Part shown: positions 6,025 to 48,662 of the stretch, piece after piece
How the letters are laid out: each line of letters starts with the position of its first letter
Position numbering within the stretch: position 1 is the first letter of the stretch
Source: Cupriavidus sp. 2SB
GTDB lineage: Bacteria; Pseudomonadota; Gammaproteobacteria; Burkholderiales; Burkholderiaceae
Reading direction: 5' to 3'
Assembly (NCBI RefSeq): GCF_005503625.1
Contig: NZ_SCMX01000020.1
Span: 1 to 64,000, forward strand
DNA: 64,000 nt
Program-made: the position numbers and the translations under genes
Notes under the pieces: generated by a model
What the model saw: the letters and a program-made list of their open reading frames with translations, nothing else
Databases searched by the model: none
Told to the model about the DNA's origin: nothing

Positions 6025-6065
6025 AAAAAAGATGCGTCCGGCGAGACGGAGTTGCCGGACGCATC
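6025..6065 (-). terminator. Rho-independent terminator of the decarboxylase operon
   Basis: GATGCGTCCGGC at 6031-6042 pairs perfectly with 6054-6065 over an 11-base loop, and six A on the + strand (6025-6030) give a T-run downstream on the minus strand. It lies 35 bases after the stop of the gene at 6101. Confidence 0.85.
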
Positions 6066-6100
6066 GACGCCGCAGAGGAGGCGGAAAAATTATTCGGGAA

Positions 6101-6700
6101 TCAGATAGAGGTCAATGCAGCGCGAACGCGCCGCAGCTCGTCTCCCATCCGCGTGAAGCGCGCATCGGTCATCTCCACCGCCGGGAAATCGGTTCCGAGC
6201 TTGGGCACTTCGGATTCGACTGCGAGTTCAATGAATGCAGGCGCCGGACCCGCGAGGATGCCGGGAAGCTGCTGGGTCAATTCATCGATGCTCGCGAAGC
6301 GCCGCACGGCGCGGTATCCGGCAGCCTTGGCCAGGGCCGGGAAATCAGCCACCGCATTTCCTGGGGTCTCGAGATTGCCCAATCCGCTGAATTGAATGCT
6401 GTTATTGAATACCACGTGGACAAAATTGGCCGGGCCAGCCTGGGCAACGGTGACCAGACCGCCAAGTTCCATCAGCAGGCTCGCATCACCGTCGAGCACC
6501 AATACGGTCTTGTCTGGCCTAGCCAATGCGATGCCCAGACCAAGCGAAGCGGCTCCGCCCATCAGCGGCACACACGCAACACTGAGTACATCGACCTCAA
6601 GCTTGTCCATGCCATTCATGGCACCCATCGTCGTGACATAGACCGCATCGGGCGCGGTTTGCTGGATGACCTCGCAGGCCTCGACTGTTCTCATATTCAT
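6101..6700 (-). CDS. comE: Sulfopyruvate decarboxylase-type beta subunit (TPP-binding)
   Basis: A 199-residue protein carrying the thiamine-diphosphate motif: 'LDGDASLL' (GD at 71-72) followed 27 residues later by 'FNN' (99-100). This is the C-terminal, cofactor-binding half of ComDE-type sulfopyruvate decarboxylase and of the related phosphonopyruvate decarboxylase. It starts 18 bases after its partner at 6719. The sulfonate genes elsewhere in the window (xsc, pta, tauE-like, sorAB) favour 3-sulfopyruvate to sulfoacetaldehyde and CO2. A phosphonopyruvate role cannot be excluded because a PhnW-like aminotransferase is also present, but no phosphonatase or C-P lyase genes are seen. Confidence 0.75.
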   Translation of the reverse strand: MNMRTVEACEVIQQTAPDAVYVTTMGAMNGMDKLEVDVLSVACVPLMGGAASLGLGIALARPDKTVLVLDGDASLLMELGGLVTVAQAGPANFVHVVFNNSIQFSGLGNLETPGNAVADFPALAKAAGYRAVRRFASIDELTQQLPGILAGPAPAFIELAVESEVPKLGTDFPAVEMTDARFTRMGDELRRVRAALTSI

Positions 6701-6718
6701 CTTGGTTCCCCTTCGCCC

Positions 6719-7279
6719 TTACGCGACCGCAATCTCACTGGGTTGCGACCATCCCACAAAATGCCCTGCGATCGCCACCGCGGGGCCACCGCGCTCTTGG
6801 GCGGCATTCCATGCTTTGGATACACCGTCGACATCGTCCGGGCCTTCCAACCGCCAGTAAGGAATATCTAGAGTCTCAAGCAGTGGCTCCAGAATCCTGA
6901 CCATGCGCCGCTTGGACTTTCTAGGATCGTCGCCGAGGTTCGAAAACTCCCTGCCGAACTGGCCGACCAGCATCAGTAGCGGAATCTTCGAGTCCAACCC
7001 CAGAGCGCGAATGCTGTTAATCGACGCGAACAAACCCTGGTTCTGCATCAGGACCGCAGCCCGCTTGCCGCCCGCGTAGAGACCCGCAGCGACTTCTATG
7101 GCCTGGTCCTCCGTTGTTGTCGGCACTACCGTAATGCCGCATGCCGGTTCCTCCAGGAGTTTGTGCAGCGCGATCTGCAACATGTCCGGCACCGTAACAA
7201 CATGCGTGATGCCGCAGCGTTTGAACTCTCCGAGGACCGACGCAGCGGTGACGGAGTATCGAGAATGTTGAATGTCCAT
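6719..7279 (-). CDS. comD: Sulfopyruvate decarboxylase-type alpha subunit
   Basis: A 186-residue protein equal to the N-terminal (PYR) half of the two-subunit decarboxylase. It has 'TEDQAIEVAAGLYAGG' (acidic residues E57/E62 near the cofactor aminopyrimidine) and 'AVLMQNQGLFASINSI' (79-89), both typical of ComD and phosphonopyruvate decarboxylase. It starts 17 bases after the permease gene ends and is followed closely by the beta subunit. Its place after a GMC dehydrogenase and a permease is unusual; published isethionate operons have only the dehydrogenase and transporter, so here two sulfoacetaldehyde-forming reactions may share one promoter. Confidence 0.75.
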   Translation of the reverse strand: MDIQHSRYSVTAASVLGEFKRCGITHVVTVPDMLQIALHKLLEEPACGITVVPTTTEDQAIEVAAGLYAGGKRAAVLMQNQGLFASINSIRALGLDSKIPLLMLVGQFGREFSNLGDDPRKSKRRMVRILEPLLETLDIPYWRLEGPDDVDGVSKAWNAAQERGGPAVAIAGHFVGWSQPSEIAVA

Positions 7280-7296
7280 GGAAACTCACTAATTCG

Positions 7297-8646
7297 TTAC
7301 ATGCTGATGGATTTTTTAAGCGACGGATGTCCCCGATGTGTCCGTTCTCGCTCGTAAGAGTCGCGCTCCCTCTTCACACGCCGCGCAATGGCAAACGCGC
7401 ACAACGAGGAGAGCAACCCAGAAATCACTACATAAGCACAGACATACCAGGGATCGCCACCGTTGATGGTGACCAAGTAGGTTGCGATGATCGGCGTCAG
7501 ACCGCCTGCCGTGATACTCGAAACCTGGTAGACAAACGAGATACCGGTGTAACGCACTCGCGCATCGAAGAGATCGCACAGGAATACTGCAACTGTCCCG
7601 TACACGGCGGCGTAGAGAATGCCGTACGGCAGCGCAATGGCAGCCCAAACTAGGGTTCGATCGCCATTTGAATGGGTGAAGGCCCAGAACGCGGGATACA
7701 CCGACAGTGCAGTGAGAATCGCTGCTACCGCATACAGGCGCTGACGTCCAAGCCGGTCCGACAGATAACCGAAGATCGGGATGAAAATCGTCAGCACGAA
7801 CGCGCCAATTCCCACCCCCGTCAGCGCGTCCTCGCGAGTCATGCCAATCTTGGAGGTCAGATAGCTGATCGTAAAGACGCTAAAGATATTGAAGAACACG
7901 CCATCAATGTGCCGCGCGCCGAGACCCAGCACGACGTTTGCTGGAAAACGTTTGAACATATCGACGAATGGTACGCGCGCCTCGCCATGACTTTGCTTCA
8001 TCTGAGCGAACTCTGGCGACTCCATGACGTTCAGCCGCACCCACATGCCGAACAGCACAAAGAGGAACGAAATGCCGAATGCAACGCGCCAGCCCCAGGC
8101 CATAAACTGCGCGTCGGTCAGCGCCATCGACAGCGCACCGATGATCCCGGCGGAAAGCAGTACTCCAATTGACAGGCCAATCTGCGGCAAGCTCGCATAG
8201 AAGCCACGCTTCTCTTCCGGCGCACATTCATACGCCATCAGTACGGCCCCACCCCACTCACCGCCCAAGCCGATTCCCTGAAGCACCCGCAGGAACAACA
8301 GGATCCCAGGGGCCCAGTAACCGATCTGCGCATACGTTGGCACCAGGCCAATAGCGACTGTGGAGAGGCCCATGATCATCAGCGTGATGACGAGTACGCT
8401 CTTTCGTCCAACTTTGTCGCCAAAGTGCCCGAAAATAATGCCGCCTAACGGGCGCGCTACGAAACCCACTGCAAAGGTGGCGTAGGCAAGCATCGTCGCT
8501 GTTGCCGGATCGCTGTTGGGAAAATACAGCTTGTTAAGCACAAGGCTCGCCACGACGCCGTAGAGAAAGAAGTCGTACCACTCGATGATGGCGCCGATGA
8601 CACTAGCAGTCGCAACGCGCCGAAGGGCCTTGGGGTTGGTATTCAT
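7297..8646 (-). CDS. MHS-family (MFS) organic-anion permease, IseU-like candidate
   Basis: A 449-residue, twelve-helix major facilitator protein. The opening 'SVIGAIIEWYDFFLYG' and 'ARPLGGIIFGHFGDKVGRK' are hallmarks of the metabolite:H+ symporter family. The start at 8646 has the ribosome site GAGGAGAC just upstream; a longer frame to 8688 has none. It lies between the GMC dehydrogenase and comD on the same strand. In Cupriavidus necator the isethionate genes include a dehydrogenase (IseJ) and a transporter (IseU), and the order here fits that arrangement. Substrate is inferred from context only; members also carry shikimate, alpha-ketoglutarate or proline/betaine. Confidence 0.75.
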   Translation of the reverse strand: MNTNPKALRRVATASVIGAIIEWYDFFLYGVVASLVLNKLYFPNSDPATATMLAYATFAVGFVARPLGGIIFGHFGDKVGRKSVLVITLMIMGLSTVAIGLVPTYAQIGYWAPGILLFLRVLQGIGLGGEWGGAVLMAYECAPEEKRGFYASLPQIGLSIGVLLSAGIIGALSMALTDAQFMAWGWRVAFGISFLFVLFGMWVRLNVMESPEFAQMKQSHGEARVPFVDMFKRFPANVVLGLGARHIDGVFFNIFSVFTISYLTSKIGMTREDALTGVGIGAFVLTIFIPIFGYLSDRLGRQRLYAVAAILTALSVYPAFWAFTHSNGDRTLVWAAIALPYGILYAAVYGTVAVFLCDLFDARVRYTGISFVYQVSSITAGGLTPIIATYLVTINGGDPWYVCAYVVISGLLSSLCAFAIARRVKRERDSYERERTHRGHPSLKKSISM

Positions 8647-8726
8647 GTTTGTCTCCTCGTCTGAAGGACGCGCGGTGTTCTCCCACACTTTTCCTTCGGA
8701 ATGAACTTGATCGAACTATCTAAGAA

Positions 8727-10424
8727 CTACAAGCGAATGCAGGCGGTGGCCTCCTCCGTCAACGCACGAGTAGCAGACGAGGTCTTCGCGATCGTCTCCA
8801 GGTTGATGGCCCGATCGGCGTTCCCGGCGGCATCGAGAATGATGTCGGCGGCTTTCTCGGCGATCATGACCGTAGGAATATTGGTATTTCCCGAAGTAAG
8901 CGTGGGCATGATGGAACAGTCCACCACGCGCAGGCCTGTCAGGCCATGCACCTCCAGTCGATTGTTCACTACTGCGCGCGCATCGTCCGCCAGTCCCATC
9001 TTGACCGTGCCGCAAGGATGAAAAATGGTTGTCGCGTATTCGCGGCAGAAGTGCAGGATTTCATCGTCGGTCACCACATCGGGACCTGGTCGATACTCTC
9101 GCTTCATATAGGGGGCCATGGCACCTGCTGCTGCCACCCGTCGTGCAAAGTTCACTCCCGCAATCGTGGTACGGCGGTCGGTATCCGTCGAAAGGTAGTT
9201 GGCGACAATGCTTGGAGCTTCGAATGGATCCAAGGAATTGATGCGCACGTGACCACGTGATTCAGGTCGAAGCTGACAGATGGAATAGGTGCATCCCGGG
9301 AAATCGTGCACCGCCCCCGCCGTACTGTCTGCCGAGAGATTGGCAAAGTGAAACTGAATATCCGGAGTCAGGTTTTCTTCCGGCAGCGCGCGGCAGAACA
9401 TCCCACCCATGTTGATTCCGACAGCAAGTGGCCCACTACGACTCAGCAGCCACTGCAGACCCATCTTCGTCTTGCCCCATGGCGTACGCATCAGATCATT
9501 CGTCGTAATCGGCTTGCTCACTTCATACATCAGCCGCACCTGCAAATGATCCTGCAGGTTTTCGCCCACGCCCTCGAGAAAGTGAACCGGCTGAATTCCA
9601 AACTGCTGGAGCAACCCGCGCGGCCCCACGCCGGAAAGCTGCAAGAGCTGGGGCGACTGGATGGCGCCGGCGCACAAGAGCACTTCCCGCCTCGCATGCA
9701 CTTCCCTGAACTGCCCTGACTGGCGATACTTCACACCGATTGCCCGCTTGCCCGCAAACAGAAGCTGCGCAGCCTGCGCTTCCGTTTCAACATGCAGATT
9801 GCTTCTTGGCATAGCGGGCTTGAGGTAACTCACGGCAGTCGAACAACGAAGACCTTTGCGTGTCGTGAGTTGAAAGTAGCCGACGCCCTCCTGGTCACCG
9901 GTGTTGAAGTCATCCACGCGGCGCACGCCAACTTGCTGCGATGCAGCGATGAAAGCGTCGACCAGCTCATTGCCGGCCGGCACGCTCGTCGCGTGCATCG
10001 GTCCGGCATCTCCCCGCGTCCGAGAACCACCAAGGTCGTTGGTTTCGAGCTTGCGGAAATATGGCAGACAATCCTCCCAAGACCAGCCTTTGTTCCCGAG
10101 TGACGCCCATTCGTCGTAGTCACGCTGCTGACCACGGATGTAAATCAGCCCGTTGATGGAGCTGGAGCCACCAAGGGTCCGACCGCGCGGCTGGTAGATT
10201 TTTCGGTTGGCGAGTTCCGGCTCGGGCTCGGTGTAGAAGCGCCAGTTGTACTGGTCGTGCTGCATCGTCTTGGCATAGCCAATTGGCACATGGATCCAGG
10301 GGTAACTGTCCTTGGGACCGGCCTCGAGCAGACACACTGTGTACCGCCCGTTTGCGGTCAGGCGATTGGCTAGGACGCATCCGGCAGAACCGGCGCCGAC
10401 GATCACATAGTCGTATGTCCGCAT
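8727..10424 (-). CDS. GMC-family flavin alcohol dehydrogenase, IseJ-like candidate
   Basis: A 565-residue glucose-methanol-choline oxidoreductase. The FAD motif G10-x-G12-x-x-G15 is at the N-terminus ('VIVGAGSAGC'), the GMC signature 'GRTLGGSSSINGLIYIRG' follows near residue 80, and the C-terminus has 'IFHPCGTVKMG' with the catalytic His and 'SGNTNIPTVMIAEKAADII'. The enzyme should oxidise a primary alcohol and pass electrons to the respiratory chain. ATG 10424 is preceded by GGAGACAAC. First gene of an operon with a permease and comDE, divergent from an IclR regulator, as reported for isethionate dehydrogenase clusters. Choline dehydrogenase is less likely because no betaine genes are nearby. 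Confidence 0.75.
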   Translation of the reverse strand: MRTYDYVIVGAGSAGCVLANRLTANGRYTVCLLEAGPKDSYPWIHVPIGYAKTMQHDQYNWRFYTEPEPELANRKIYQPRGRTLGGSSSINGLIYIRGQQRDYDEWASLGNKGWSWEDCLPYFRKLETNDLGGSRTRGDAGPMHATSVPAGNELVDAFIAASQQVGVRRVDDFNTGDQEGVGYFQLTTRKGLRCSTAVSYLKPAMPRSNLHVETEAQAAQLLFAGKRAIGVKYRQSGQFREVHARREVLLCAGAIQSPQLLQLSGVGPRGLLQQFGIQPVHFLEGVGENLQDHLQVRLMYEVSKPITTNDLMRTPWGKTKMGLQWLLSRSGPLAVGINMGGMFCRALPEENLTPDIQFHFANLSADSTAGAVHDFPGCTYSICQLRPESRGHVRINSLDPFEAPSIVANYLSTDTDRRTTIAGVNFARRVAAAGAMAPYMKREYRPGPDVVTDDEILHFCREYATTIFHPCGTVKMGLADDARAVVNNRLEVHGLTGLRVVDCSIMPTLTSGNTNIPTVMIAEKAADIILDAAGNADRAINLETIAKTSSATRALTEEATACIRL

Positions 10425-10604
10425 GACTGTTGTCTCCGTTATGATTTGCCTGCCTCTGAGGCTCATCGCGATGCAGAGGTGCTTGTCTTGGTATCTTTGT
10501 CTCCCGTCTCTGTCGTCTCAAGTAGAACTACTCAAACTCACAGAAACTGAGTCGAAAATCGCATTCGCGGCTCGATTTCACCTATCGCCATCGAAAGTCA
10601 CGCC

Positions 10605-11390
10605 ATGGACGACGACCAACAGAACTCCACCGAACACAAAATGCTTCGGATGCTGCGCATGCTGGAATGCGTCGCGAGCGCCTCGGAGTCGGTAACGATC
10701 GGGCAAATATCCATGCGCCTGGACATCCCAAAGGCGTCCGCCGGTCGGCTAGTAGATGTCCTAGTTGCCAACCGATTCCTTGTGCGCATGCCGGGTGAGC
10801 GCGGCCTGATTCCCGGACCTCGCAGCACCCAACTATCCACCTCTGTGATAGGCAACAGTGCGTTCCGCAGGTTGTCGCGGGCCGTACTACGTGCTCTCGT
10901 GGATCGACTCGGTGAGACCTGCAATCTTTCCGCCTTCGATGGCGACCGGGTGCTGTATCTAGACCGCGTCGAGACCAGTCAGCCCTTGCGCATGCACTTG
11001 GAACTTGGCTCCCGACACCCACTGCACTGCACTGCCGGTGGCAAACTGTTTCTCTCCCTGCTTCCCAGGGTGGAAAGAGAAGCGCTACTCGATCGCATCG
11101 CGTTAAATCGCATGACGCCGCAAACCATTGTCAGTCGTCCGATGTTGACGACCGAACTCGACAAGCTGGCCGCACAGCGCGTGGGCTGGGACGAAGAGGA
11201 GTTTGTAATTGGGATGGTGGGTCTTGCCGTGCCGATCGCGCGGCCAGGAGAGCGGTGCAACGTCGCCCTCGTCTGTCACGCAGCGACAGCGAGAACCACA
11301 CTCACCCAACTTCGGACTCAGTTGCCCTTGCTTCAGGAGGCCGCGCAGCGTCTGTATCCGCTCTTTTACCCGGATACCGCACAATCCTGA
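10605..11390 (+). CDS. IclR-family transcriptional regulator of the GMC-permease-comDE operon
   Basis: A 261-residue protein with an N-terminal winged helix (residues 12-65, 'LRMLECVASASESVTIGQISMRLDIPKASAGRLVDVLV') and a C-terminal IclR effector domain with 'PLRMHLELGSRHPLHCTAGGKLFLSLL' and 'DEEEFVIGMVGLAVPI'. It is divergent from the GMC dehydrogenase with 180 bases between. That spacer holds a short palindrome (AGTAG-AA-CTACT near 10523) and GAAAATCG / CGATTTC halves, which are operator candidates. It is clearly a paralogue of the IclR protein at 44242, with the same effector-domain motifs. Confidence 0.85.
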   Translation: MDDDQQNSTEHKMLRMLRMLECVASASESVTIGQISMRLDIPKASAGRLVDVLVANRFLVRMPGERGLIPGPRSTQLSTSVIGNSAFRRLSRAVLRALVDRLGETCNLSAFDGDRVLYLDRVETSQPLRMHLELGSRHPLHCTAGGKLFLSLLPRVEREALLDRIALNRMTPQTIVSRPMLTTELDKLAAQRVGWDEEEFVIGMVGLAVPIARPGERCNVALVCHAATARTTLTQLRTQLPLLQEAAQRLYPLFYPDTAQS

Positions 11391-11662: not shown

Positions 11663-12955
11663 TCAAGCAGCCTTGTCCTCGAGCACCTTTGCCGCACCAT
11701 TTCCGTTTGCTAGCACGCGATCGATCAGCTCAACCCAATGTACGACAGGTTGCATCGTTCCACTCTGAAGATGTGAAATACAACCAATGTTGGCCGTAGC
11801 GATGGTTTGAGCGCCGGTCTGCGTCAGCTTCTTCAGCTTGTCATCGCGCAAGCGCATCGAGAACTCGGGTTGCAGTACCGAGTAAGTACCCGCAGAACCG
11901 CAGCAAAGATGGCTGTCCGCGCAGAGCCTGACTTCGATCCCAAAGGCGGCAAGCAACGGCTCCACGACGCCCTTCAAACGTTGTCCATGCTGCAGCGTGC
12001 ACGGCGGATGATAGGCTACCGGCTCCTGCGTCGAGGTTGACTGTATCCCATTGGTCAATACAGGCATCAATTCAGGCAACACCTCCGACAAGTCTTTGGC
12101 CAATGCCGAAATGACCCTGGCGCGCTCGGCATATGCCGGGTCATTACGCAGGAGATGAGCATACTCTTTCACCATTGCGCCACACCCCGATGCATTGATG
12201 ACAAGGGTATTCACGCCATTCGAAACATGCGGCCACCATGCATCGATGTTTCGTCTCATGTCATCCAAGCCGCCATCGTGATCGCCAGTATGGTAGCGAA
12301 TGGCACCACAACAACCAGCCTTGCGCGCGACAACCAGTTCTACTCCGGCCTTATCCAGGACTCTTGCCGTAGCGAGATTGATATTCGGCGACATCGTTGG
12401 CTGTACGCATCCCTCAAGCAGAAGCATCTTCCTTTCGTGCTTACGCGTGGACACTTCTCCGCCAGGCACGACGGCTTGCCTGACTGGGATCTTCCTTCGA
12501 ACCACTTCCGGCAGGGCAGGCCGCATAATCTGGCCAACTCGCATAGCAGCGCCAAACAACCGTGGCCGTGTCAGCCCCTCCCTAAGCGCCCATCTGATTA
12601 AGCGCTCCTTGGTCGGACGTCTCATACCTGCCGTGTCCAGACGCTCATCTACGATGACGCGCCCGATATCCACCAGGCGACCGTAAGTCACGCCCGACGG
12701 ACAAGTCGACTCGCAATTTCGGCAAGTCAGGCAGCGGTCCAAGTGCTTGCGCGTGCTTTGCGACAGCTCGTTGCCTTCCAAGACCTGCTTCATCAGGTAG
12801 ATCCGGCCCCGAGGACCGTCGAGCTCATCGCCGACAAGTTGATAGGTGGGACACGTCGCTGTGCAGAAGCCGCAATGCACGCATTTCTCGATGATAGATT
12901 TTGCCTCCTCAGCATCATCGGAACCGATGAGGAAGTCCGCTAACGTTGTCTGCAT
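11663..12955 (-). CDS. glcF: Glycolate oxidase-type iron-sulfur subunit
   Basis: A 430-residue protein with two [4Fe-4S] ferredoxin motifs near the N-terminus, 'CVHCGFCTATCPTY' (about 26-39) and 'CLTCRNCESTCPSG' (about 76-89), followed by two CCG-type domains ('GCCGAIRYHTGD' and 'CCGSAGTYSVLQ') that bind further cofactor. This is GlcF architecture: electron transfer from the FAD subunits GlcD/GlcE to the membrane quinone pool. It is the last gene of the operon and starts 24 bases after glcE. The oxidised 2-hydroxyacid may be glycolate or lactate or, given the setting, sulfolactate. Confidence 0.85.
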   Translation of the reverse strand: MQTTLADFLIGSDDAEEAKSIIEKCVHCGFCTATCPTYQLVGDELDGPRGRIYLMKQVLEGNELSQSTRKHLDRCLTCRNCESTCPSGVTYGRLVDIGRVIVDERLDTAGMRRPTKERLIRWALREGLTRPRLFGAAMRVGQIMRPALPEVVRRKIPVRQAVVPGGEVSTRKHERKMLLLEGCVQPTMSPNINLATARVLDKAGVELVVARKAGCCGAIRYHTGDHDGGLDDMRRNIDAWWPHVSNGVNTLVINASGCGAMVKEYAHLLRNDPAYAERARVISALAKDLSEVLPELMPVLTNGIQSTSTQEPVAYHPPCTLQHGQRLKGVVEPLLAAFGIEVRLCADSHLCCGSAGTYSVLQPEFSMRLRDDKLKKLTQTGAQTIATANIGCISHLQSGTMQPVVHWVELIDRVLANGNGAAKVLEDKAA

Positions 12956-12979
12956 TCTGTGTCGCTGTTGGCAGTAGTT

Positions 12980-14077
12980 TCAAAGACCTACATACATGCG
13001 GTCCACCCCAAAGATACCCATGGGATCGAACGTCGCTTTCAGTCTCTTGTGGATCGCCCACGCTGCCGGGGGCAGCATGGTGAACACCCCGTTGGATTTC
13101 TCGCCATTCCGGAAGAGAGTGGCATGTCCACCCACCGCCCGAGCGGCAAGTCGTACCTGTTCGGCTGTGGCCAGATGGTCATCGGGTGCATGCCACCAGC
13201 GCTGCCCTCCCCCCCATTCGACAAGCTGCTCGCCTTTGAGCCGAAGGGCAGGCGCAACACTAGGAACCGCAATGCGCCAAAGTGGCTCGGAGTGATGCCG
13301 CGCGAAAAAATCGTGGGATTGGCCGCGAAGACCTTCCCATTGTTCCTTTGCCATCTGTTCAGGCAGCGCTTGGCCGCCCAACTTCTGCGTTGCAGCCCGC
13401 ACCGCTGCACGGGCGCCGGCCAACTTCACTAAGGCGGTGTCTTCGAACCATGCCGTTGCCGCAATGGGCAACGGCTGGCTGGTGCACTTGTTGAAGAATT
13501 CCAGGGCGCTTTCTTGATTCATCTGGAATTCCAGCGTGAGCGTCGCAGCCGGAATCGGAAGCACTTTCAGCGAAATCTCGGTAACCAGTCCCAGGGTCCC
13601 TAGAGATCCCGCCAACAGTCGCGAGACGTCGTAGCCGGCAACATTCTTCATCACCTGTCCACCGAAGCTGAGGAGCTGAGCGTTCCCATCCACTAGCTTC
13701 GCGCCGAGCACAAAATCGCGAAGCGCTCCGACAGATTGCCGCCGCGGCCCCGACAAGCCTGCTGCGAATGCTCCTCCAATCGTGGCGGTGCTCTGCGCTG
13801 AATCAATGCGGAAATGGGGTGGTTCAAATGGCAGGCACTGCCCGCTCTCTGCTAGCACAGCTTCGATCTCTCGAAGTTCAGTACCACAGCGCGCCGTGAT
13901 GACCAGTTCTGCGGGGTCATAGTCGACAATCCCGGCGTAACCACGCGTATCGACGATATCTCCGACGAGCGATTGCCCATAAAAATCTTTCGTTCCGCCA
14001 CCACGGAACCGCAGAGGCTGCTTCTTGCTTCCCGCCTCTCGAATGGTGTCGACAAGTTGAGTTAGAACTGATTGCAT
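12980..14077 (-). CDS. glcE: Glycolate oxidase-type FAD-binding subunit GlcE
   Basis: A 365-residue protein of the FAD-linked oxidase (PCMH) family. The N-terminal half has 'PLRFRGGGTKDFYG', 'LVITARCGTELREIEAVLAESGQCLPFEPPHF' and 'ATIGGAFAAGLSGPRRQSVGALRDFVLGAKLVDG', all typical GlcE features, and the C-terminus ends in 'FDPMGIFGVDRMY'. It is the second flavoprotein subunit of a GlcDEF complex. Start ATG 14077 (Met-Gln-Ser-Val) is favoured over the upstream ATG at 14089. Sits between glcD (45 bases) and glcF (24 bases). Confidence 0.85.
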   Translation of the reverse strand: MQSVLTQLVDTIREAGSKKQPLRFRGGGTKDFYGQSLVGDIVDTRGYAGIVDYDPAELVITARCGTELREIEAVLAESGQCLPFEPPHFRIDSAQSTATIGGAFAAGLSGPRRQSVGALRDFVLGAKLVDGNAQLLSFGGQVMKNVAGYDVSRLLAGSLGTLGLVTEISLKVLPIPAATLTLEFQMNQESALEFFNKCTSQPLPIAATAWFEDTALVKLAGARAAVRAATQKLGGQALPEQMAKEQWEGLRGQSHDFFARHHSEPLWRIAVPSVAPALRLKGEQLVEWGGGQRWWHAPDDHLATAEQVRLAARAVGGHATLFRNGEKSNGVFTMLPPAAWAIHKRLKATFDPMGIFGVDRMYVGL

Positions 14078-42065: not shown

Positions 42066-43094
42066 ATGAAAGCGATTCACCGAATCATCGATCGTGCCCG
42101 TGCGGATCCCCAGCGCATCGCGCTCTGCGAAGCGGAAGACCCCAGGGTCCTCCTCGCCGCGCGGCGCGCGATGGCCGAAGGCATCGCCCACCCTATCCTG
42201 GTGGGCGATCGCCCCAGGATTACCGTAAGCGCCGACAACGCCAACGTGGATCTTCGTGACATCACAATCCTTGACCCGCAGGACGCAGACGTCGGCGAAC
42301 CCTTCGCAGAAGAGCTCTTCCGCCTCCGCAAAGCAAAGGGAATGTCACGAGACACCGCAGCGGCGGAAGTCCGCAAGCCGCTATGTTTCGCCAACATGCT
42401 GGTGCGGATGGGGCATGCGGATGGCTCCGTTGCCGGCGCCGCGCACACCACGGCCGACGTCGTTCGCAGCGCCATCCAACTGATCGGCCTCGACCCGGCG
42501 TGCAAGCTGGTTTCCAGTTTCTTCATCATGATGCTCTGCGAGCCTTTCCATACGGTCAAAGGCGGCGTCATCTTTACCGATTGCGGCCTGGTGGTCGACC
42601 CCGATGATCGTCAGCTCGCGGAAATCGCAATGGCGGGCGCAGATAGTGCATCAAACTTGCTGCTGGAGGAACCACGCGTTGCAATGCTCTCCTTCTCAAC
42701 CAGTGGCAGTGCACATCACCCTGCGGTGGACAAGGTAGTTCGGGCGACCGAGATAGTCCGCCAACGGCGACCAGCACTGGCCATCGACGGTGACGTTCAA
42801 CTCGACGCAGCCATTGTCGCGGAGATCGCGGCGAAGAAGATTGCACACTCACAGGTTCAGGGTCATGCCAATGTCCTAGTCTTTCCCGGCCTGGAAGCTG
42901 GCAATATCGGCTACAAGCTTGCCGAACGAGTGGGCGGCGCCAAGGCCATCGGACCTCTCCTCCAAGGGCTTCGAAAGCCGGCCAACGACCTATCCCGCGG
43001 ATGCAGCGCCGACGACGTATTTCACGTCATTGCGGTCACCGTCGTACAGGCACAGGCCGCGAAATGTTTGACATCCACTGAATTGCCCCGTTGA
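42066..43094 (+). CDS. pta: Phosphate acetyltransferase
   Basis: A 342-residue protein with the single-domain Pta fold: 'RIALCEAEDPRVLLAARRAMAEGIAHPILVGD', 'MLVRMGHADGSVAGAAHTTADVVRSAIQLIG' and 'NVLVFPGLEAGNIGYKLAERVGGAKAIGPLLQGL'. It converts the acetyl phosphate made by Xsc to acetyl-CoA. The short form without the N-terminal regulatory domain is the one commonly linked to xsc. It begins 21 bases after xsc. Confidence 0.95.
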   Translation: MKAIHRIIDRARADPQRIALCEAEDPRVLLAARRAMAEGIAHPILVGDRPRITVSADNANVDLRDITILDPQDADVGEPFAEELFRLRKAKGMSRDTAAAEVRKPLCFANMLVRMGHADGSVAGAAHTTADVVRSAIQLIGLDPACKLVSSFFIMMLCEPFHTVKGGVIFTDCGLVVDPDDRQLAEIAMAGADSASNLLLEEPRVAMLSFSTSGSAHHPAVDKVVRATEIVRQRRPALAIDGDVQLDAAIVAEIAAKKIAHSQVQGHANVLVFPGLEAGNIGYKLAERVGGAKAIGPLLQGLRKPANDLSRGCSADDVFHVIAVTVVQAQAAKCLTSTELPR

Positions 43095-43160: not shown

Positions 43161-44228
43161 ATGCTGCTTCTCAACCCCGGCCCCGTCACACTATCGCAGC
43201 GTGTTCGGCGTAGCCTCCTGCAACCGGACCTTTGCCACCGCGAGAGCGAGTTCTTCGACCTCCAGGATGAGGCCAGACGGCGTATCGGCGGCGTGTATGG
43301 ACTCGACAGCAACGAATGGGCTTCGGTGCTGCTCACGGGATCCGGCACGGCGGCCGTAGAGAGTATGATCGCAGGACTTGTACCGGCGGGCGGCAAGCTC
43401 CTGATCGTACAAAACGGCGTCTATGGTGAGCGTATTGCGCAGATTTCCGCGCAGTATCAGATACCGCACACCCTTGTGAAGCACGACTGGATGGACGCGC
43501 CGGATATCGCCCGCATCGGGGCTGCGTTACATTCCGACAAGGGGATTACACACGTAGCTGTGATCCACCACGAAACCACCACGGGCCGCCTGAACGATCT
43601 CGCGGCCATCGACAAGTTGTGTCAGGCGCAGGGGGTTCGTCTCCTGGTCGATGCAGTAAGCAGCTTCGGCGCGGAGGCAATCGACTTCAATGGCAGCATC
43701 GACGCCGTAGCCGCCACCGCCAACAAGTGTCTGCACGGCGTTCCGGGAATTGCGTTCGTCATTGCGCGACGCAGCGCCCTCGCGAGCGCAACAAGCCGTA
43801 CTTACTATCTCGATATCGCGCGCCATGCCAAATTGCAGGATCAGCGCAACACCCCCTTCACGCCGGCGGTGCACGCCCTCTACGCTTTGGTTGAAGCACT
43901 CCGCGAGCACGACGAGGAAGGTGGCTGGAAGGCCCGCCATCGCCGATATGCTTCGTTGGCGGGCCGAGTCCGCGAGGGACTCGCTGCCCTGGGCATCAAA
44001 GAGTTGCTCCCGGCCTTCATGTCATCTGTTGTGCTTCGTGCCTACGCCCTCCCGAGCGGCCTTGACTATCCTCACCTCCACGACGCATTGAAAGCGCATG
44101 GCTTTGTAATCTATGCAGGTCAGGGCGATCTCTCCAGGACACTATTCAGGGTCTCAACGATGGGCGCTCTAGATACTGATGATGTTGATCGGTTGATCAG
44201 GGCATTCGAATCCCTGCTGCACAAATAG
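43161..44228 (+). CDS. Class V aminotransferase of the PhnW (2-aminoethylphosphonate) type
   Basis: A 355-residue PLP enzyme. 'LNPGPVTLSQRVRRSLL' at the start, 'LLTGSGTAAVESMIAGLVP' (58-75), D164 in 'LLVDAVSSFGAEAIDFN' and Schiff-base K189 in 'ATANKCLHGVPGIAFVIARR' match PhnW, which makes phosphonoacetaldehyde from 2-aminoethylphosphonate and pyruvate. Taurine is the sulfonate analogue, and the gene is third in the xsc-pta operon, so the product here is more likely sulfoacetaldehyde. Known taurine:pyruvate aminotransferases are class III and unrelated, so this would be a different solution. No phosphonatase gene is present in the window. Confidence 0.8.
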   Translation: MLLLNPGPVTLSQRVRRSLLQPDLCHRESEFFDLQDEARRRIGGVYGLDSNEWASVLLTGSGTAAVESMIAGLVPAGGKLLIVQNGVYGERIAQISAQYQIPHTLVKHDWMDAPDIARIGAALHSDKGITHVAVIHHETTTGRLNDLAAIDKLCQAQGVRLLVDAVSSFGAEAIDFNGSIDAVAATANKCLHGVPGIAFVIARRSALASATSRTYYLDIARHAKLQDQRNTPFTPAVHALYALVEALREHDEEGGWKARHRRYASLAGRVREGLAALGIKELLPAFMSSVVLRAYALPSGLDYPHLHDALKAHGFVIYAGQGDLSRTLFRVSTMGALDTDDVDRLIRAFESLLHK

Positions 44229-44241: not shown

Positions 44242-45075
44242 ATGATGCCGACAAATTCTCTCAACCAACAGATCCCTCCGGCAGCGCAAGGCGGGCCCTC
44301 TGTCCCTTTGACGCCGGAGCTTTCCTTCGAACGGGAAACGCCGACATTGCGAGCCTTATCTCTGCTCGAATTCCTGGTGGCCGCTGATCGGCCGCTCAGT
44401 CCTTCGGAGATTCTCCAAGGATTCGAAGCCCCAAAAGCTTCCCTACATCGGATGCTCACGGCGCTGGTAGCAGGCGGACTCGTAATACGCGAGCCCGGCA
44501 ACCGCAATACCTATGCTGTTGGACCGCGGCTGGCGCGGCTCGGATTGGCGATCGTCACGCGGTCGGGCCCCAAGCAACTCCGCATCGCGGTGTTGGCAAA
44601 GCTGGTCGAGGATATTGGAGAAACGGTCAACGTCACCGTTCTCCATGAAAACTCAATTCTGTATCTTGACCGGATGGAAGCGCCTTGGCCGCTGAGGCTC
44701 GACCTGCAGCCCGGCTCCCGGGTACCCTTGCATTGCTCAGCCAGCGGCAAACTGCTGCTATCCGCACTTCCGCTTAATCAGCGTACGGCGCTTGTTCAAC
44801 AATTGCCTCTGGATCGCTATACCGAAAAGACCATTACTGATATGGGGCGTTTGGAGGCTGAACTCGACCGCTGTGTGGAACAGCAAATCGGCGTCGACGA
44901 TGAAGAGTTCATCGCAGGCATTTCATGTGTCGCCGTCCCGATCTACGATCCTGATGGGCAGGTTCTGGCTGCCCTTGCTGTCCATGCGCCCGCCGTGCGA
45001 TCTCCGCTATCCAGGTCGCTGTCACTTGTACCCCGATTGCAGCGAGCGGCTGCCGAACTGGCGAACACGTTCTAG
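44242..45075 (+). CDS. IclR-family regulator within the xsc operon
   Basis: A 277-residue protein with a 30-residue Pro-rich N-terminal extension, a winged helix (about 37-90, 'LRALSLLEFLVAADRPLSPSEILQGFEAPKASLHRMLTALVAGGLV') and an IclR effector domain ('PLRLDLQPGSRVPLHCSASGKLLLSALP', 'DDEEFIAGISCVAVPIYDPDG'). Lying between the aminotransferase and the exporter, it probably senses a sulfonate or its aldehyde and acts at the palindromes before xsc. It is similar to the regulator at 10605. Confidence 0.85.
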   Translation: MMPTNSLNQQIPPAAQGGPSVPLTPELSFERETPTLRALSLLEFLVAADRPLSPSEILQGFEAPKASLHRMLTALVAGGLVIREPGNRNTYAVGPRLARLGLAIVTRSGPKQLRIAVLAKLVEDIGETVNVTVLHENSILYLDRMEAPWPLRLDLQPGSRVPLHCSASGKLLLSALPLNQRTALVQQLPLDRYTEKTITDMGRLEAELDRCVEQQIGVDDEEFIAGISCVAVPIYDPDGQVLAALAVHAPAVRSPLSRSLSLVPRLQRAAAELANTF

Positions 45076-45079: not shown

Positions 45080-45841
45080 ATGACGCTAGACGCAGCACTT
45101 CCTATCTTGGTGACTATGGCAGCGGCCAGCTATTTTCAGACAGTCACCGGCTTTGGATTGGGCATGATTGCCGTGGGCGTAGTCAGCGGTCTCCACCTTG
45201 CACCCGTAGCTGTTATTGCGATGGTGGCGAGCCTCGTGACGCTCGCAAACAGCGCGATGGCGCTGCCCGGGAAACTACACCACGTTGATTGGCGCGCCGT
45301 ACTTTTTGCTACGATCGGCATCCTCCCCTCCGTCGTCGTTGGCGTACTGGCACTGGAATACTTGAGCCAAGCGGCGTCCGGAATTCTTCACTTTGTTCTC
45401 GGCGCAGTCGTAATGTATGGCGGCGTGACGGCCGCATTTCGTCCGGCTTCCTTGCCCGAACGATCAAGCAATGTCAGCTTTTTGGTGAGCGGCGTACTCG
45501 GCGGTGTGCTGAGTGGCATGTTCGGGGTTTCGGGCCCACCGCTGATTTTTCAGTTTTATAGGCAACCGTTCTCGCTTATCGGCATCCGCTGCGCATTGAT
45601 CTTTATCTTTACGGTCACCTCATCAGTTCGGACTGCTTTCAATGCGTGGCAAGGTCAAATTTCGCAGGAGACCCTGGCGGTCGCTGTAACGGCGGTACCG
45701 GTCGTCGCGCTCGCCACACTGGTCGCTCGTGCGTGGCCACCGCCCTTGTCATTAAAGGCATCACGCCGACTGGCCTATTCCGTGCTCATGGTCATTGGCG
45801 CCGGCCTTATGCTTCCAGCCGTCCTCGCGATGTTTGCCTGA
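45080..45841 (+). CDS. TauE/SafE-family sulfite/sulfonate exporter
   Basis: A 253-residue membrane protein with about eight helices in two related halves: 'AAASYFQTVTGFGLGMIAVGVVSGLHLAPVAVIAMVASLVTLANSAM' and 'LVSGVLGGVLSGMFGVSGPPLIFQFY'. The 'GGVLSGMFGVSGPP' loop is the family mark. TauE/SafE proteins are thought to export sulfite or sulfoacetate from cells degrading sulfonates. It starts five bases after the IclR gene and ends the xsc operon. Downstream on the other strand is the periplasmic sulfite dehydrogenase, which fits export followed by oxidation. Confidence 0.85.
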   Translation: MTLDAALPILVTMAAASYFQTVTGFGLGMIAVGVVSGLHLAPVAVIAMVASLVTLANSAMALPGKLHHVDWRAVLFATIGILPSVVVGVLALEYLSQAASGILHFVLGAVVMYGGVTAAFRPASLPERSSNVSFLVSGVLGGVLSGMFGVSGPPLIFQFYRQPFSLIGIRCALIFIFTVTSSVRTAFNAWQGQISQETLAVAVTAVPVVALATLVARAWPPPLSLKASRRLAYSVLMVIGAGLMLPAVLAMFA

Positions 45842-46098: not shown

Positions 46099-46470
46099 CT
46101 ATTTTGACATTCCGGCAGTAGAGGGCCGGGCAGGATCCTTGACCGTGTTTTGCGCCTCCGCGCCATAGGTCTTCACCAGATAGTCAACAATCGGCTCGAT
46201 ATTTTCATCCTTGAGAGGTGCGCCAAAAGGCTTCTTCATTTTCTTTACGGTCGCATCCCAGTATGCGCGAGATGATGTTGGCGGCTGTGTACTGACGTAT
46301 TGCGCAGAGTGACAGATCATGCAGTTCTGCAATGCAAGGTTGTAGCCTGGGAGAGTGCTGGCCTTGTACGTGGCAGTCTCCTGGGGCAGTTTGATTTCCT
46401 TGGGGCTCGCGGAGGCAAATTGACTCACGAACGTGGCCGCGGCAAATGCCGCGATAAGTTTGTTGTTCAT
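46099..46470 (-). CDS. sorB: Monohaem cytochrome c, sulfite dehydrogenase subunit SorB
   Basis: A 123-residue secreted protein: signal (1-22), haem site C50-Met-Ile-C53-H54 ('LQNCMICHSAQYV') and a C-terminal helix 'IEPIVDYLVKTYG' that packs on the haem. The distal Met may be in 'VKKMKKPFG'. It lies ten bases after sorA and would accept electrons from the molybdenum subunit and pass them to cytochrome c oxidase. Confidence 0.85.
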   Translation of the reverse strand: MNNKLIAAFAAATFVSQFASASPKEIKLPQETATYKASTLPGYNLALQNCMICHSAQYVSTQPPTSSRAYWDATVKKMKKPFGAPLKDENIEPIVDYLVKTYGAEAQNTVKDPARPSTAGMSK

Positions 46471-46480
46471 CGCGTGCCTC

Positions 46481-47728
46481 TCAAACCACCGTGACTTGCG
46501 TGCTTTCTACGACGTTGCGCATATATCCAGCCGGGTTCCAGCGAGCGGTGGTTGGCTGAACTTCGCCCGCCTGGCTGCGGGCCCTGACGCGAAGATCCAA
46601 ATTGCCCTTCTGCGATGGCCGATAGTCGATATGCCACTCGCGGAATGAATACTTGCCCAGGTCCTTGCCCAGCTTCGCGGGGCGCCATGTTTTGCCCGCA
46701 TCGTCGGAGAAAGAAACCTCTGCGATACCGCTTCCGCCATCGAAGGCGATTCCCTTGATCGTGGTCGTCAGCCCCGCGCGGAGTATGCTGTTCTGGCCAA
46801 GGCTAGTGATGAACGAGCGCACGCCAAACCGCCCTATCGGGACAGTTTCCGCGGGTGTCTTACCGGGCTCCACGCACGCGCAATCGTTCTTCGGAATGCG
46901 ATACGCAGACTTGACCCAGAATCCTTCGAAATTCTTGTCCAGCACCTCGATATGCGAGAGATGCTTAACCCAATACGTGCCGAAGTATCCGGGCACCACC
47001 AGACGCAGCGGGTAGCCATTGAGAAATGGCAAATCCTTGCCGTTCATCTGCCATGCAAGCATGACCTCGCCGTCCATGGCATGGTCAAACGTCAACGCTT
47101 TGACAAAGTCTGGTCCGCCCTCAAGTGGCGGCCGATCGAGGCCATCGAAAGAAACAGACACCGCACCGGGCTTGACGCCGGCCCGTTCAAGGACAGTGCG
47201 AAGGGGAATGCCCGTCCATCGCGCATTGCCCATGGCACCGTTGCCTAGCTGCCCACCATTCACGCGAGGGGAAAAAAAGCCGCGACTGTTTCCCGAGCAT
47301 TGGTTCACCGCGACAATCTCGACGGCTTGCCCCATCTTGCGCAGTTCGGCAAGACTCAGGTCCAACGAGCGCCCGACGTGGCCATCTACCTTAAGTCGAT
47401 AGGTCGATGCGTCAACGGAGGTCGGAATGCCGCTCCAGTGATAGCGCACAAAGAACGCGTCATTGGGGGTAATTGGTCCCTCGTTGAAGATCTCGAATGG
47501 GGTCTCCAACTGGGGAGGCCGATTGGTCAGCAGAATCAATGGGCGCTTCTGGGGGAATGCGACAAGTTCCCGATGCCCATTCTCAAACGCCATATCCCTT
47601 GAGAGCGTCGCGGCAAACAATCCCTTCTCGTGGGCACCAAGTACCCCACCAACCGCCAGAGCGGCGCCCTGCGCCAAAAAGCGTCGACGCCGCAGGGCTT
47701 CAGACGGGATTGCGATGACTTTATTCAC
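46481..47728 (-). CDS. sorA: Molybdenum-containing sulfite dehydrogenase, SorA type
   Basis: A 415-residue protein from a GTG start at 47728 with AGGAG upstream. A twin-arginine signal is visible at residues 13-32 ('RRRRFLAQGAALAVGG'). The sulfite-oxidase fold has 'FFVRYHWSGIP', the Mo-binding Cys C144 in 'VAVNQCSGNSRGFFSP', 'GNARWTGIPLRTVLERAG' and 'YPLRLVVPGYFGTYWVKHLSHIEV'; a dimerisation domain follows. It oxidises sulfite to sulfate in the periplasm. Lies opposite the IclR at 47910, and ends the detoxification step for the Xsc and CuyA branches. SoxC is the alternative but no sox genes are near. Confidence 0.9.
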   Translation of the reverse strand: MNKVIAIPSEALRRRRFLAQGAALAVGGVLGAHEKGLFAATLSRDMAFENGHRELVAFPQKRPLILLTNRPPQLETPFEIFNEGPITPNDAFFVRYHWSGIPTSVDASTYRLKVDGHVGRSLDLSLAELRKMGQAVEIVAVNQCSGNSRGFFSPRVNGGQLGNGAMGNARWTGIPLRTVLERAGVKPGAVSVSFDGLDRPPLEGGPDFVKALTFDHAMDGEVMLAWQMNGKDLPFLNGYPLRLVVPGYFGTYWVKHLSHIEVLDKNFEGFWVKSAYRIPKNDCACVEPGKTPAETVPIGRFGVRSFITSLGQNSILRAGLTTTIKGIAFDGGSGIAEVSFSDDAGKTWRPAKLGKDLGKYSFREWHIDYRPSQKGNLDLRVRARSQAGEVQPTTARWNPAGYMRNVVESTQVTVV

Positions 47729-47886
47729 GAAGTCTCCTGTGGAATAGTTTTGGTGCTTTGCCTCGCACATGGAGCGTAGCGGATCCGCCAACTTGCGGTC
47801 CAACTCACTGTATTCATATGACTAATCGAATTTTCCGGTAAGCACTCCGCCCAGTTACCTGTTGCCAACGCAGAATGCTAAGATAC

Positions 47887-47903
47887 GTCCTAATATTTAG
47901 GAC
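47887..47903. promoter_or_regulatory. Palindromic operator at the IclR start, upstream of sorAB
   Basis: GTCCTAA (47887-47893) and TTAGGAC (47897-47903) flank TAT. It ends seven bases before ATG 47910, so binding would block translation initiation or the promoter of the regulator. sorA starts 159 bases away on the other strand. Confidence 0.65.
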
Positions 47904-47909
47904 CGCGAG

Positions 47910-48662
47910 ATGGACAAGACCCTCCTGAAAGGCCTGATGGTGCTCGAGGAAATTATCGACATCGACGGCGAAAGTCATACGATCGACGAACTGGCTGAGC
48001 GCGTTGGGCTCACGCGGAGTAACACGCATCGCACGCTGCAGACCCTGGTCCATGCCGGCTATGTTGCAAAGGACGAGACGGGCTCAGGGTATCGCGGAAC
48101 CACCCGATTGTTCGAGTTGGCAGCCCGGCAACTCGCAAGACTGGATGTTCGGCGAGTTGCTGCACCGGCCATGAGAAAGCTTGCGAACAAGACGGGAGAG
48201 ACGGTGCACCTTTCCATCCTCGATGGAATTGACGTGGTGTACATCGAGAAAATTGACAGCCTTCAACCGATCCGTGCGTACTCCATGGTTGGCGGGCGAG
48301 CACCCGCCTATGCAGTAGCGACGGGAAAAGCGCTTCTGGCCTACCAGATCGATGGCTTTCTTGACCAGTTTGAAGACCGGATAGTCCGCCACACACCCTC
48401 GACGATTACGTCGCTGCCGCTGATCAAAGATGAGCTTCGCAAGGTCATGCGGGTGGGCTACGCCGTCAACAATGGCGAATGGAGAGTCGGCGTTGGTGGA
48501 CTGGCGGTGACGATATTTAATTTGCTGGACCAGCCGGTAGCTGCTGTAGGCATCTCGGGGCCACTGGAACGGCTAACCGCCAAGACCATGCGCGAATTTG
48601 CGCCGGACGTTGTGGAATGCGCCCGTGAAATCTCTCGACAACTGGGTCATCAATCGACCTAG
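47910..48662 (+). CDS. IclR-family regulator divergent from sorAB
   Basis: A 250-residue protein with a winged helix ('LKGLMVLEEIIDIDGESHTIDELAERVGLTRSNTHRTLQTLVHAGYV', 5-50) and an IclR effector domain ('KTGETVHLSILDGIDVVYIEKIDSLQPIRAYSMVGGRAPAYAVATGKALLAY'). It probably controls sorAB and itself through the palindrome at its start. It differs from the two IclR proteins at 10605 and 44242, so it probably sees a different effector. Confidence 0.85.
   Translation: MDKTLLKGLMVLEEIIDIDGESHTIDELAERVGLTRSNTHRTLQTLVHAGYVAKDETGSGYRGTTRLFELAARQLARLDVRRVAAPAMRKLANKTGETVHLSILDGIDVVYIEKIDSLQPIRAYSMVGGRAPAYAVATGKALLAYQIDGFLDQFEDRIVRHTPSTITSLPLIKDELRKVMRVGYAVNNGEWRVGVGGLAVTIFNLLDQPVAAVGISGPLERLTAKTMREFAPDVVECAREISRQLGHQST

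What the first reader, a model, noticed from the sequence alone, without database searches (positions are those of the whole stretch)
6025..48662. Candidate many-entry sulfonate catabolon converging on Xsc and sulfite oxidation
Seen: Xsc, Pta, ComDE-type decarboxylase, GMC dehydrogenase with MHS permease and IclR, CuyA-like lyase with aspartate-type ABC importer, TauE/SafE exporter and SorAB within 42 kb. Established: the bifurcated sulfolactate pathway uses sulfopyruvate decarboxylase-Xsc and cysteate sulfo-lyase branches, and isethionate uses a membrane GMC dehydrogenase. Inference: this strain combines isethionate, sulfopyruvate/sulfolactate, amino-sulfonate and cysteate entries in one region, with a GlcDEF oxidase that could make sulfopyruvate.
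Basis: partly seen in the sequence, partly recalled or inferred. Interest (0 to 1): 0.72.

Follow-up and report, generated by a model that had tools for sequence, protein, structure and literature searches.

The report
Sulfonate genes with borrowed phosphonate aminotransferase
A Cupriavidus-type bacterium carries, beside a well-established gene set for breaking down sulfur-containing sulfonates, an aminotransferase that looks copied from a phosphonate-making pathway and re-purposed, while some neighbouring genes first taken for sulfonate genes seem to belong to a different and still unsolved pathway.

Summary
The single "catabolon" reading is only partly supported: it is a mosaic of modules with separate regulators. 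(1) The third gene of the xsc operon (43161-44228) is a class V aminotransferase of the AepZ type (2-aminoethylphosphonate biosynthesis). A 77% paralogue sits in a PepM-Ppd-AepZ operon elsewhere in the genome. The xsc-linked copies form one clade with the longest branch of the tree apart from the outgroup, then purifying selection; no Tpa orthologue was found. Best reading: a taurine(-like) transaminase feeding Xsc. (2) ComDE is equally far (25%) from a sulfopyruvate and a phosphonopyruvate decarboxylase. It travels with a GMC gene, and in its nearest relatives also with a two-subunit aconitase X. On an alphaproteobacterial plasmid this module lies beside malate synthase G and GlcDEF, so GlcDEF is most simply glycolate oxidase. 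Aconitase X nevertheless follows xsc in four small genomes of one genus, so a link to sulfonates exists but is unexplained. All functions are inferred from sequence.

The parts
6101..6700 (-). ComE-like TPP decarboxylase beta subunit
   Evidence: TIGR03846 84.5 bits (cut-off 221.5), TIGR03297 99 (312.5); about 25% to a true ComDE and to Ppd over the joined pair
6719..7279 (-). ComD-like TPP decarboxylase alpha subunit
   Evidence: TIGR03845 79 bits (cut-off 148); found in 12 of 299 family genomes at E 1e-20
7297..8688 (-). MHS-family metabolite:H+ permease
   Evidence: TIGR00883 403 bits, cut-off 443
8727..10466 (-). GMC (choline dehydrogenase-like) dehydrogenase, candidate isethionate-type
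   Evidence: PRK02106 644 vs 605; its clade is sister to six GMCs near xsc
10605..11390 (+). IclR-type regulator, divergent from GMC
11663..15718 (-). GlcF, GlcE, GlcD glycolate-oxidase-type complex
   Evidence: GlcF and GlcE over cut-off, GlcD below; one of three close GlcD copies in the genome
15818..16324 (-). aconitase X small (swivel) subunit
   Evidence: PF01989 74.3 vs 27
16288..17565 (-). aconitase X large subunit of unknown function
   Evidence: lacks several C3LHyp-binding residues
17523..18506 (-). TctC/Bug-type solute receptor
   Evidence: PF03401 223 vs 27
18575..19351 (-). GntR-type regulator
19547..20943 (+). MFS transporter split into two overlapping ORFs
21061..22380 (+). AroA-type enolpyruvyl transferase
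   Evidence: TIGR01356 448 vs 287; homologue (59%) in the same block of G214
22433..24244 (-). SulP anion permease
   Evidence: TIGR00815 330.5 bits, cut-off 380
24695..25870 (+). PatB-type C-S lyase
   Evidence: TIGR04350 424 vs 340
27148..28188 (+). LysR-type regulator
28409..31575 (+). aspartate/glutamate-type ABC importer (SBP, two permeases, ATPase)
31598..32608 (+). CuyA-like cysteate sulfo-lyase
   Evidence: NF052482 447.4 vs 450; 50.3% to the R. pomeroyi homologue
38828..39799 (-). TctC/Bug-type receptor divergent from xsc
   Evidence: PF03401 250 vs 27
40200..42044 (+). Xsc sulfoacetaldehyde acetyltransferase
   Evidence: TIGR03457 1077 vs 676
42066..43094 (+). Pta phosphate acetyltransferase
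   Evidence: TIGR00651 352 vs 311
43161..44228 (+). AepZ-type class V aminotransferase, candidate taurine transaminase
   Evidence: TIGR03301 403.7 vs 360.8; tree; residue changes; dN/dS 0.097
44242..45075 (+). IclR-type regulator in the xsc operon
45083..45841 (+). TauE/SafE-type exporter (start codon chosen by me)
   Evidence: PF01925 62.5 vs 32.6 on ORF 44792-45841
46099..46470 (-). SorB-like monohaem cytochrome c
   Evidence: one CxxCH motif; homologue beside SorA in G286
46481..47803 (-). SorA sulfite dehydrogenase catalytic subunit
   Evidence: NF052245 667 vs 600
47910..48662 (+). IclR-type regulator divergent from SorA

Best explanation
The region is a mosaic around a true Xsc operon. 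An amino-sulfonate, most likely taurine, is deaminated to sulfoacetaldehyde by an aminotransferase (43161-44228) that descends from the AEP-biosynthesis transaminase AepZ by duplication and re-specialised. Xsc converts sulfoacetaldehyde and phosphate into acetyl phosphate and sulfite. Pta passes the acetyl group to CoA. SorAB oxidises sulfite, and TauE-type and perhaps SulP transporters export sulfur anions. The GMC dehydrogenase (isethionate-type) and the CuyA-like lyase with its aspartate-type importer are separate, independently regulated entries for isethionate and cysteate. ComDE, aconitase X, TctC, GntR, SulP and GlcDEF form a second recurrent module with an unknown substrate, in which GlcDEF oxidises glycolate. 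Shown here: gene identities, synteny, phylogeny and selection. Inferred: every substrate and the direction of each reaction.
For: Xsc, Pta, AT and IclR are same-strand neighbours with gaps of 21, 66 and 13 bases, followed by TauE (coordinates). AT passes the PhnW-AepZ cut-off. A 77% paralogue at C77 follows PepM and Ppd. The three xsc-linked copies (window, EM10, C. campinensis MJ1; the last two identical) are one clade, 100/100, with stem 0.31, the longest branch apart from the PhnW outgroup, next longest 0.20 (28 of 82 AepZ used). At 8 positions that are at least 90% conserved in 82 AepZ, all three carry a residue never seen there. dN/dS is 0.097. None of the six full-length class III aminotransferases found in the genome is labelled Tpa, and a tauA-linked class III probe from G072 finds only AptA at 36%. 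PhnW-type genes sit beside xsc in G091 (a 259-aa ORF, perhaps truncated) and G250. NT26_p1 places ComDE, GMC, SulP and AcnX beside malate synthase G, GlcDEF-type genes and acs.
Against: No biochemical or expression data. AepZ is thought to work in the aminating direction in its own pathway (recalled), so this enzyme could make rather than consume taurine. The paper passages I read describe PhnW as an AEP enzyme and none reports taurine transamination. The xsc-AT association rests on two lineages (window; EM10/MJ1). The host's own AepZ is not the closest relative in the tree, the clade's exact sister is weakly resolved (80/73), Burkholderia and Paraburkholderia AepZ lie in that sister group, and the only outgroup is a long branch, so the duplication could be old or the copy imported. 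A TauA homologue (53%) is on another contig, not here. The Tpa probe is assigned only by its place beside tauA, and NCBIfam may hold no Tpa model. TauXY was not searched for.
Confidence: 0.5

Rival explanations
1. One reading: one many-entry catabolon in which ComDE decarboxylates sulfopyruvate made by GlcDEF or GMC, feeding the same Xsc.
For: All parts lie within 42 kb. The five ComD-bearing genomes closest in gene set (window, EM10, G286, G078, G259; G259 grouped by gene set, its ComD is only 42%) all have Xsc. ComD, GMC and AcnX occur together in these five.
Against: ComDE is about 25% to a true ComDE and to Ppd alike and fails both cut-offs. No ComD within 10 kb of xsc in 60 fetched xsc regions. 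Of the other seven ComD genomes (39-49% identity), 3 have Xsc, near the background of 118 in 299. GlcDEF-type genes recur with AcnX and have no match in EM10's fetched stretch. No shared operator.
Confidence: 0.15
2. The AT keeps the AEP/phosphonoacetaldehyde activity of its family; it is a phosphonate enzyme parked in the operon, or links phosphonoacetaldehyde to an Xsc with relaxed specificity.
For: It still passes the AepZ/PhnW model, and by eye the motifs of the two printed sequences are largely the same.
Against: Long stem with changes at positions conserved in AepZ; an intact AepZ with PepM and Ppd elsewhere in the genome; the operon-mates are sulfonate enzymes.
Confidence: 0.2
3. ComDE, GMC, AcnX, SulP and GlcDEF form a pathway for a non-sulfonate or sulfate-ester carbon source that yields glycolate and acetate, unrelated to Xsc. 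(This concerns another part of the window than the AT rival, so the odds do not add up to one.)
For: NT26_p1 gene set; sulfatase genes near AcnX in G259 and G100; GlcFED-SulP-AcnX-TctC-GntR-AroA block in G214 on another contig than its xsc.
Against: AcnX directly follows xsc and tctC in four genomes of genus g12; 14 of 16 genomes with close AcnX have Xsc against 118 of 299.
Confidence: 0.35

Closest known systems
Taurine dissimilation via Tpa/TauXY, Xsc and Pta
   Same: Xsc-Pta core, TauE-type exporter, sulfoacetaldehyde as the inferred hub
   Different: The amino group is apparently removed by a class V AepZ-type aminotransferase; no class III Tpa orthologue found, no tauABC in the window's annotated genes
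2-aminoethylphosphonate transaminases PhnW/AepZ (TIGR03301)
   Same: Family membership, 77% identity to the host's own AepZ
   Different: Sits in an xsc-pta operon; 8 positions changed that are at least 90% conserved in AepZ
Isethionate dissimilation by the GMC dehydrogenase IseJ with Xsc (iseJKLM-R of Ruegeria pomeroyi)
   Same: GMC dehydrogenase, transporter and regulator; a sister clade neighbours xsc in other genera
   Different: MHS permease instead of TRAP, ComDE-like pair attached, 30 kb from xsc; IseJ itself not compared
Cysteate sulfo-lyase CuyA (R. pomeroyi cuyARZ)
   Same: 50% identity, LysR gene nearby
   Different: Aspartate-type ABC importer next to it instead of the exporter CuyZ; 2.6 bits under the family cut-off
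Aconitase X type II
   Same: Separate swivel and catalytic subunits; residues matching Cys273, Cys508 and Lys530 kept
   Different: Other C3LHyp-binding residues replaced; context is xsc or GMC-ComDE-SulP

Membership tests
Xsc sulfoacetaldehyde acetyltransferase | Curated equivalog score TIGR03457 | tested here: met
   1077 vs 676 bits
PhnW/AepZ aminotransferase | Curated equivalog score TIGR03301 | tested here: met
   403.7 vs 360.8; the EM10 copy 397
PhnW/AepZ aminotransferase | Phosphonate gene context | tested here: not met
   Neighbours are Xsc, Pta, IclR, TauE
Taurine:pyruvate aminotransferase Tpa | Class III aminotransferase fold (PF00202; that Tpa is class III is recalled) | tested here: not met
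   The AT belongs to the PhnW/AepZ family; own full-length class III genes carry the labels GabT, ArgD, PRK07483, BioA, AptA, HemL
Taurine transaminase activity | Turns taurine into sulfoacetaldehyde | not testable with these tools
   Needs enzyme assay
Sulfopyruvate decarboxylase ComDE | Curated scores TIGR03845 and TIGR03846 | tested here: not met
   79 vs 148 and 84.5 vs 221.5; Leisingera ComDE passes both (149.4 and 242)
Phosphonopyruvate decarboxylase | Curated score TIGR03297 (single-chain model) | tested here: not met
   99 and 60 vs 312.5, split in two genes
CuyA cysteate sulfo-lyase | Curated score NF052482 | tested here: inconclusive
   447.4 vs 450; R. pomeroyi homologue 553; next best model for the window protein 315.6
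IseJ isethionate dehydrogenase | GMC family and grouping with GMCs near xsc | tested here: met
   Sister to six GMCs within 9 kb of xsc; R. pomeroyi IseJ sequence itself not compared, so this is context only
IseJ isethionate dehydrogenase | Membrane-bound isethionate oxidation | not testable with these tools
   Needs assay
Glycolate oxidase GlcDEF | Three subunits with curated scores | tested here: inconclusive
   GlcE and GlcF pass, GlcD 752 vs 897
[quoted passage not shown] tumefaciens numbering) | tested here: not met
   Asp, Thr, Gly, Ile in the alignment, counted by me with an offset of 10; residue roles from PMC8184944 section 9. Small-subunit residues not tested
SorAB sulfite dehydrogenase | SorA curated score and adjacent c-type cytochrome | tested here: met
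   667 vs 600; CxxCH in the next gene
Catabolon (one co-regulated unit) | Shared regulator or operator | tested here: inconclusive
   Five separate regulator genes; in five intergenic stretches the best shared 12-mers equal shuffled controls (8 shuffles a pair); a weak test

The most novel reading that the evidence does not exclude
A phosphonate-biosynthesis transaminase (AepZ) was duplicated and re-specialised into a taurine transaminase inside an xsc operon, a sulfonate enzyme born from a phosphonate enzyme. Beside it, an uncharacterised two-subunit aconitase X, linked to xsc in three genera and to GMC-ComDE across two classes of bacteria, may perform an unknown dehydration step in organosulfur breakdown.
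Probability: 0.4. Interest if true: 0.68.

Novelty: new variant of a known kind. Interest (0 to 1): 0.5.

Why it matters
If the aminotransferase acts on taurine, it is a traceable case of an enzyme moving from C-P to C-S metabolism, with both paralogues in one genome and few candidate specificity residues. The aconitase X link points to a testable role for enzymes that their own literature calls uncharacterised. The correction on ComDE and GlcDEF would stop a likely mis-annotation of sulfolactate metabolism.

Tried and rejected
A shared operator between the GMC, xsc, SorA, ABC and GntR promoters: best 12-mer matches 9-11 of 12, shuffled 9-11.

An xsc neighbour for the AT among 80 named loci (up to 10 kb each side, some shorter): none; 147 further relatives were not kept and not examined.

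ComD elsewhere: only the window's own genome among 369 genomes of the class at E 1e-25.

GlcDEF as sulfolactate oxidase: rejected as the simplest reading because.

Aconitase X as C3LHyp dehydratase: rejected on residues.

Literature searches for the AT, isethionate, AcnX with sulfo (54), C3 sulfonates (55), PhnW structure (95), CobS/Xsc (96) and glycolate/AcnX (101): no listing or passage that I saw reports an AepZ-type taurine transaminase or an AcnX-Xsc link. The library holds open-licence papers only, and most hits were seen as listings. No structure prediction was run.


Full report
What is there. The window is G000:C87:1-64000 of a 6.98 Mb genome in 174 contigs. The first 4 kb have 67-70% GC, the rest 51-61%.

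Modules and their conservation. In EM10 most of 5.2-45.8 kb is syntenic at about 82-87% DNA identity. Exceptions: GlcDEF and AroA have no match in the fetched stretch, the aconitase X block matches only at 69-74% and in another order, and SorAB is absent there. Of 25 proteins compared with EM10, 22 gave dN/dS 0.02-0.14 (several over part of their length). For AcnX large, TctC1 and SulP dS was saturated, and for AcnX small and GntR it was 3.2 and 4.3, against 0.35-1.4 for the other genes. I infer that the AcnX-TctC-GntR-SulP block has another history than its flanks, perhaps separate acquisitions next to the same GMC-ComDE module. No shared operator was found in a small test.

The aminotransferase. 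Gene 43161-44228 is in tandem with xsc, pta, iclR and tauE and passes TIGR03301. The genome holds a second copy, 77% identical, at C77, downstream of a PEP mutase and a phosphonopyruvate decarboxylase: AEP biosynthesis. Among 299 family genomes, 165 have a homologue at E 1e-100, and only the window genome and EM10 show two (at most 6 candidates scored per genome). Of 80 named loci none has Xsc beside it (147 relatives not kept). Of 60 fetched xsc regions, from 59 of the 117 other family genomes with Xsc, one (EM10) has this gene within 10 kb, and two (G091, as a 259-aa ORF, and G250) have a different PhnW-type gene. The tree (32 rows, 28 of 82 AepZ used) puts the three xsc-linked copies in one clade (100/100) with a stem of 0.31; apart from the PhnW outgroup the next longest branches are 0.20. 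Against a simple story: the host's own AepZ is not the nearest, the exact sister is weakly resolved (80/73) and includes Burkholderia and Paraburkholderia rows, and the outgroup is very long. Nineteen positions carry a residue unseen in 82 AepZ; at eight of them AepZ is at least 90% conserved. EM10 and MJ1 are identical here, so this is two independent sequences. That these residues line the substrate pocket is not shown. No Tpa: six full-length class III genes carry other labels, and a class III probe found beside tauA in G072 has its best hit at 35-36% in the window genome, EM10, G002, G237 and G145; in the window genome that hit is AptA. NCBIfam did not label the probe Tpa either; its best model was AptA, under cut-off. 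A TauA homologue (53%) is on contig C131.

GMC. The tree of 33 GMC proteins puts window, EM10, G286 and G078 (all with ComDE) as sister to six GMCs near xsc without ComDE (G072, G047, G164, G017, G128, G270; joint clade 100/99). The GMCs of G259 and NT-25, also with ComDE, lie just outside; a second clade of eight GMCs near xsc lies further off, and nine ComDE-linked GMCs form a remote clade. The tool warned of several long branches. IseJ is described as a membrane-bound flavin isethionate dehydrogenase acting with Xsc in PMC6453916 (passages), is named in PMC11423573 (passages), and is listed with TRAP genes iseKLM in PMC4334477 (passages).

ComDE-like pair. Found in 12 of 299 family genomes. 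In all 12 a ComE and a GMC gene are close by, as on the NT-25 and NT-26 plasmids. It fails the curated cut-offs of both candidate families, while a Leisingera ComDE passes; identities are 25.5% to that ComDE and 24.6% to the host's phosphonopyruvate decarboxylase. Xsc is present in 8 of these 12 genomes: in 5 of 5 for the four with 68% or more ComD identity plus G259 (added for its gene set, ComD 42%), and in 3 of 7 for the rest; background 118 of 299.

Aconitase X and GlcDEF. Both AcnX subunits are at 15818-17565. Close AcnX (68% or more) occurs in 16 of 299 genomes, and 14 of these have Xsc (Fisher p 7e-5, not corrected for kinship). I dropped three hits under 50% (G004, G079, G281), of which two have Xsc, so with them it is 16 of 19. 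In 9 of the 14, AcnX lies within about 45 kb of xsc (0.34 expected), but five are one genus and two are the window and EM10; for the other seven genomes it is 2, both of genus g10 (0.10 expected). In four of six genomes of genus g12 (about 2 Mb, 44-46% GC; Polynucleobacter by my guess, no call names them) the order is xsc-tctC-acnX large-acnX small (L152, L225, L226, L229; not L227, L228), in L152 next to DmsC/PhsA-type genes on the other strand. The large subunit keeps residues matching Cys273, Cys508 and Lys530 but not Glu292, Ser293, Asn294, Cys510 and Tyr534 (alignment, counted by me; roles from PMC8184944 section 9). The same paper states that subclasses IIc-f lack the landmark residues of either known activity (section 14); I did not place the window protein in a subclass. 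On plasmid NT26_p1 the order is ComE, ComD, GMC, GntR, TRAP, SulP, AcnX large, AcnX small, malate synthase G, a haem-binding protein (GlcG by recall), two FAD proteins annotated as GlcD and FAD-binding in NT-25, GlcF, acetate-CoA ligase. In G214 the block GlcFED-SulP-AcnX-TctC-GntR-AroA recurs without GMC-ComDE in the 16.7 kb read. GlcD has two other close copies in the window genome (79% and 68%). Hence GlcDEF is read as glycolate oxidase. What AcnX dehydrates, and how it connects to xsc, is open.

CuyA. Intact in the window; MJ1 and EM10 show a frame change near residue 247, EM10 further ones near the start. It is 50.3% identical to a R. pomeroyi megaplasmid protein that scores 553 on the CuyA model and whose gene lies beside a LysR gene and an exporter gene; I take it for cuyA (SPOA0158 in PMC4334477, passages). 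Close homologues (E 1e-120) occur only in the window genome and EM10 among 299. The aspartate-type importer is a plausible cysteate importer (inference).

Papers. Passages only: PMC6453916, PMC11423573, PMC10590968, PMC10574752, PMC8154272, PMC4334477; passages plus sections 9 and 14: PMC8184944; the rest search listings. The bifurcated sulfolactate pathway of Roseovarius and the isethionate gene-cluster paper of 2010 are recalled and seen only as references.

Verdict. A real and largely ordinary Xsc region with an unusual aminotransferase and an unsolved companion module; the single-catabolon model is only partly supported.

Noticed in passing
L163 about 7.4-9.4 kb (own contig C87, about 71.4-73.4 kb); 40 of 60 fetched xsc regions: A CobS/CobT-like AAA+/VWA gene pair lies within 10 kb of xsc in 40 of 60 fetched xsc regions of the family, and about 30 kb downstream of xsc on the window's contig; one literature search gave no paper.
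   Followed up: partly
window 19547-20943: An MFS transporter is split into two overlapping ORFs holding its N- and C-terminal halves; disabled gene or assembly error.
   Followed up: no
window 21061-22380; L239 14381: An AroA-type gene (EPSP synthase family) sits next to the GntR/MFS/AcnX block here and in G214 (59% identity); an odd partner for a catabolic block.
   Followed up: no
L211 8391-9394 (MJ1); EM10 2298834-2299835: CuyA shows a frame change near residue 247 in both sister strains, intact in the window.
   Followed up: partly
L148 6732-14965; L141 5246-14602: G250 and G091 carry two xsc copies with a PhnW-type gene beside one of them (in G091 a 259-aa ORF).
   Followed up: partly
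L163 13958-15544 (contig C87 about 78 kb): A second GMC dehydrogenase (60% identity) with TctC receptors lies downstream; a close homologue is in EM10 (L166).
   Followed up: no
window 32756-38744: DsbG, two-component system, DsbG and DsbD genes lie between CuyA and Xsc, also in EM10 and MJ1; link to sulfonates unknown.
   Followed up: no
L203 13082-14725; L243 12928: A sulfatase gene neighbours the AcnX module in G259 and a homologue (64%) does in G100, hinting at a sulfate-ester substrate.
   Followed up: no
window 1-4000: The first 4 kb have 67-70% GC, then a drop to 51-61%; possible island border.
   Followed up: no
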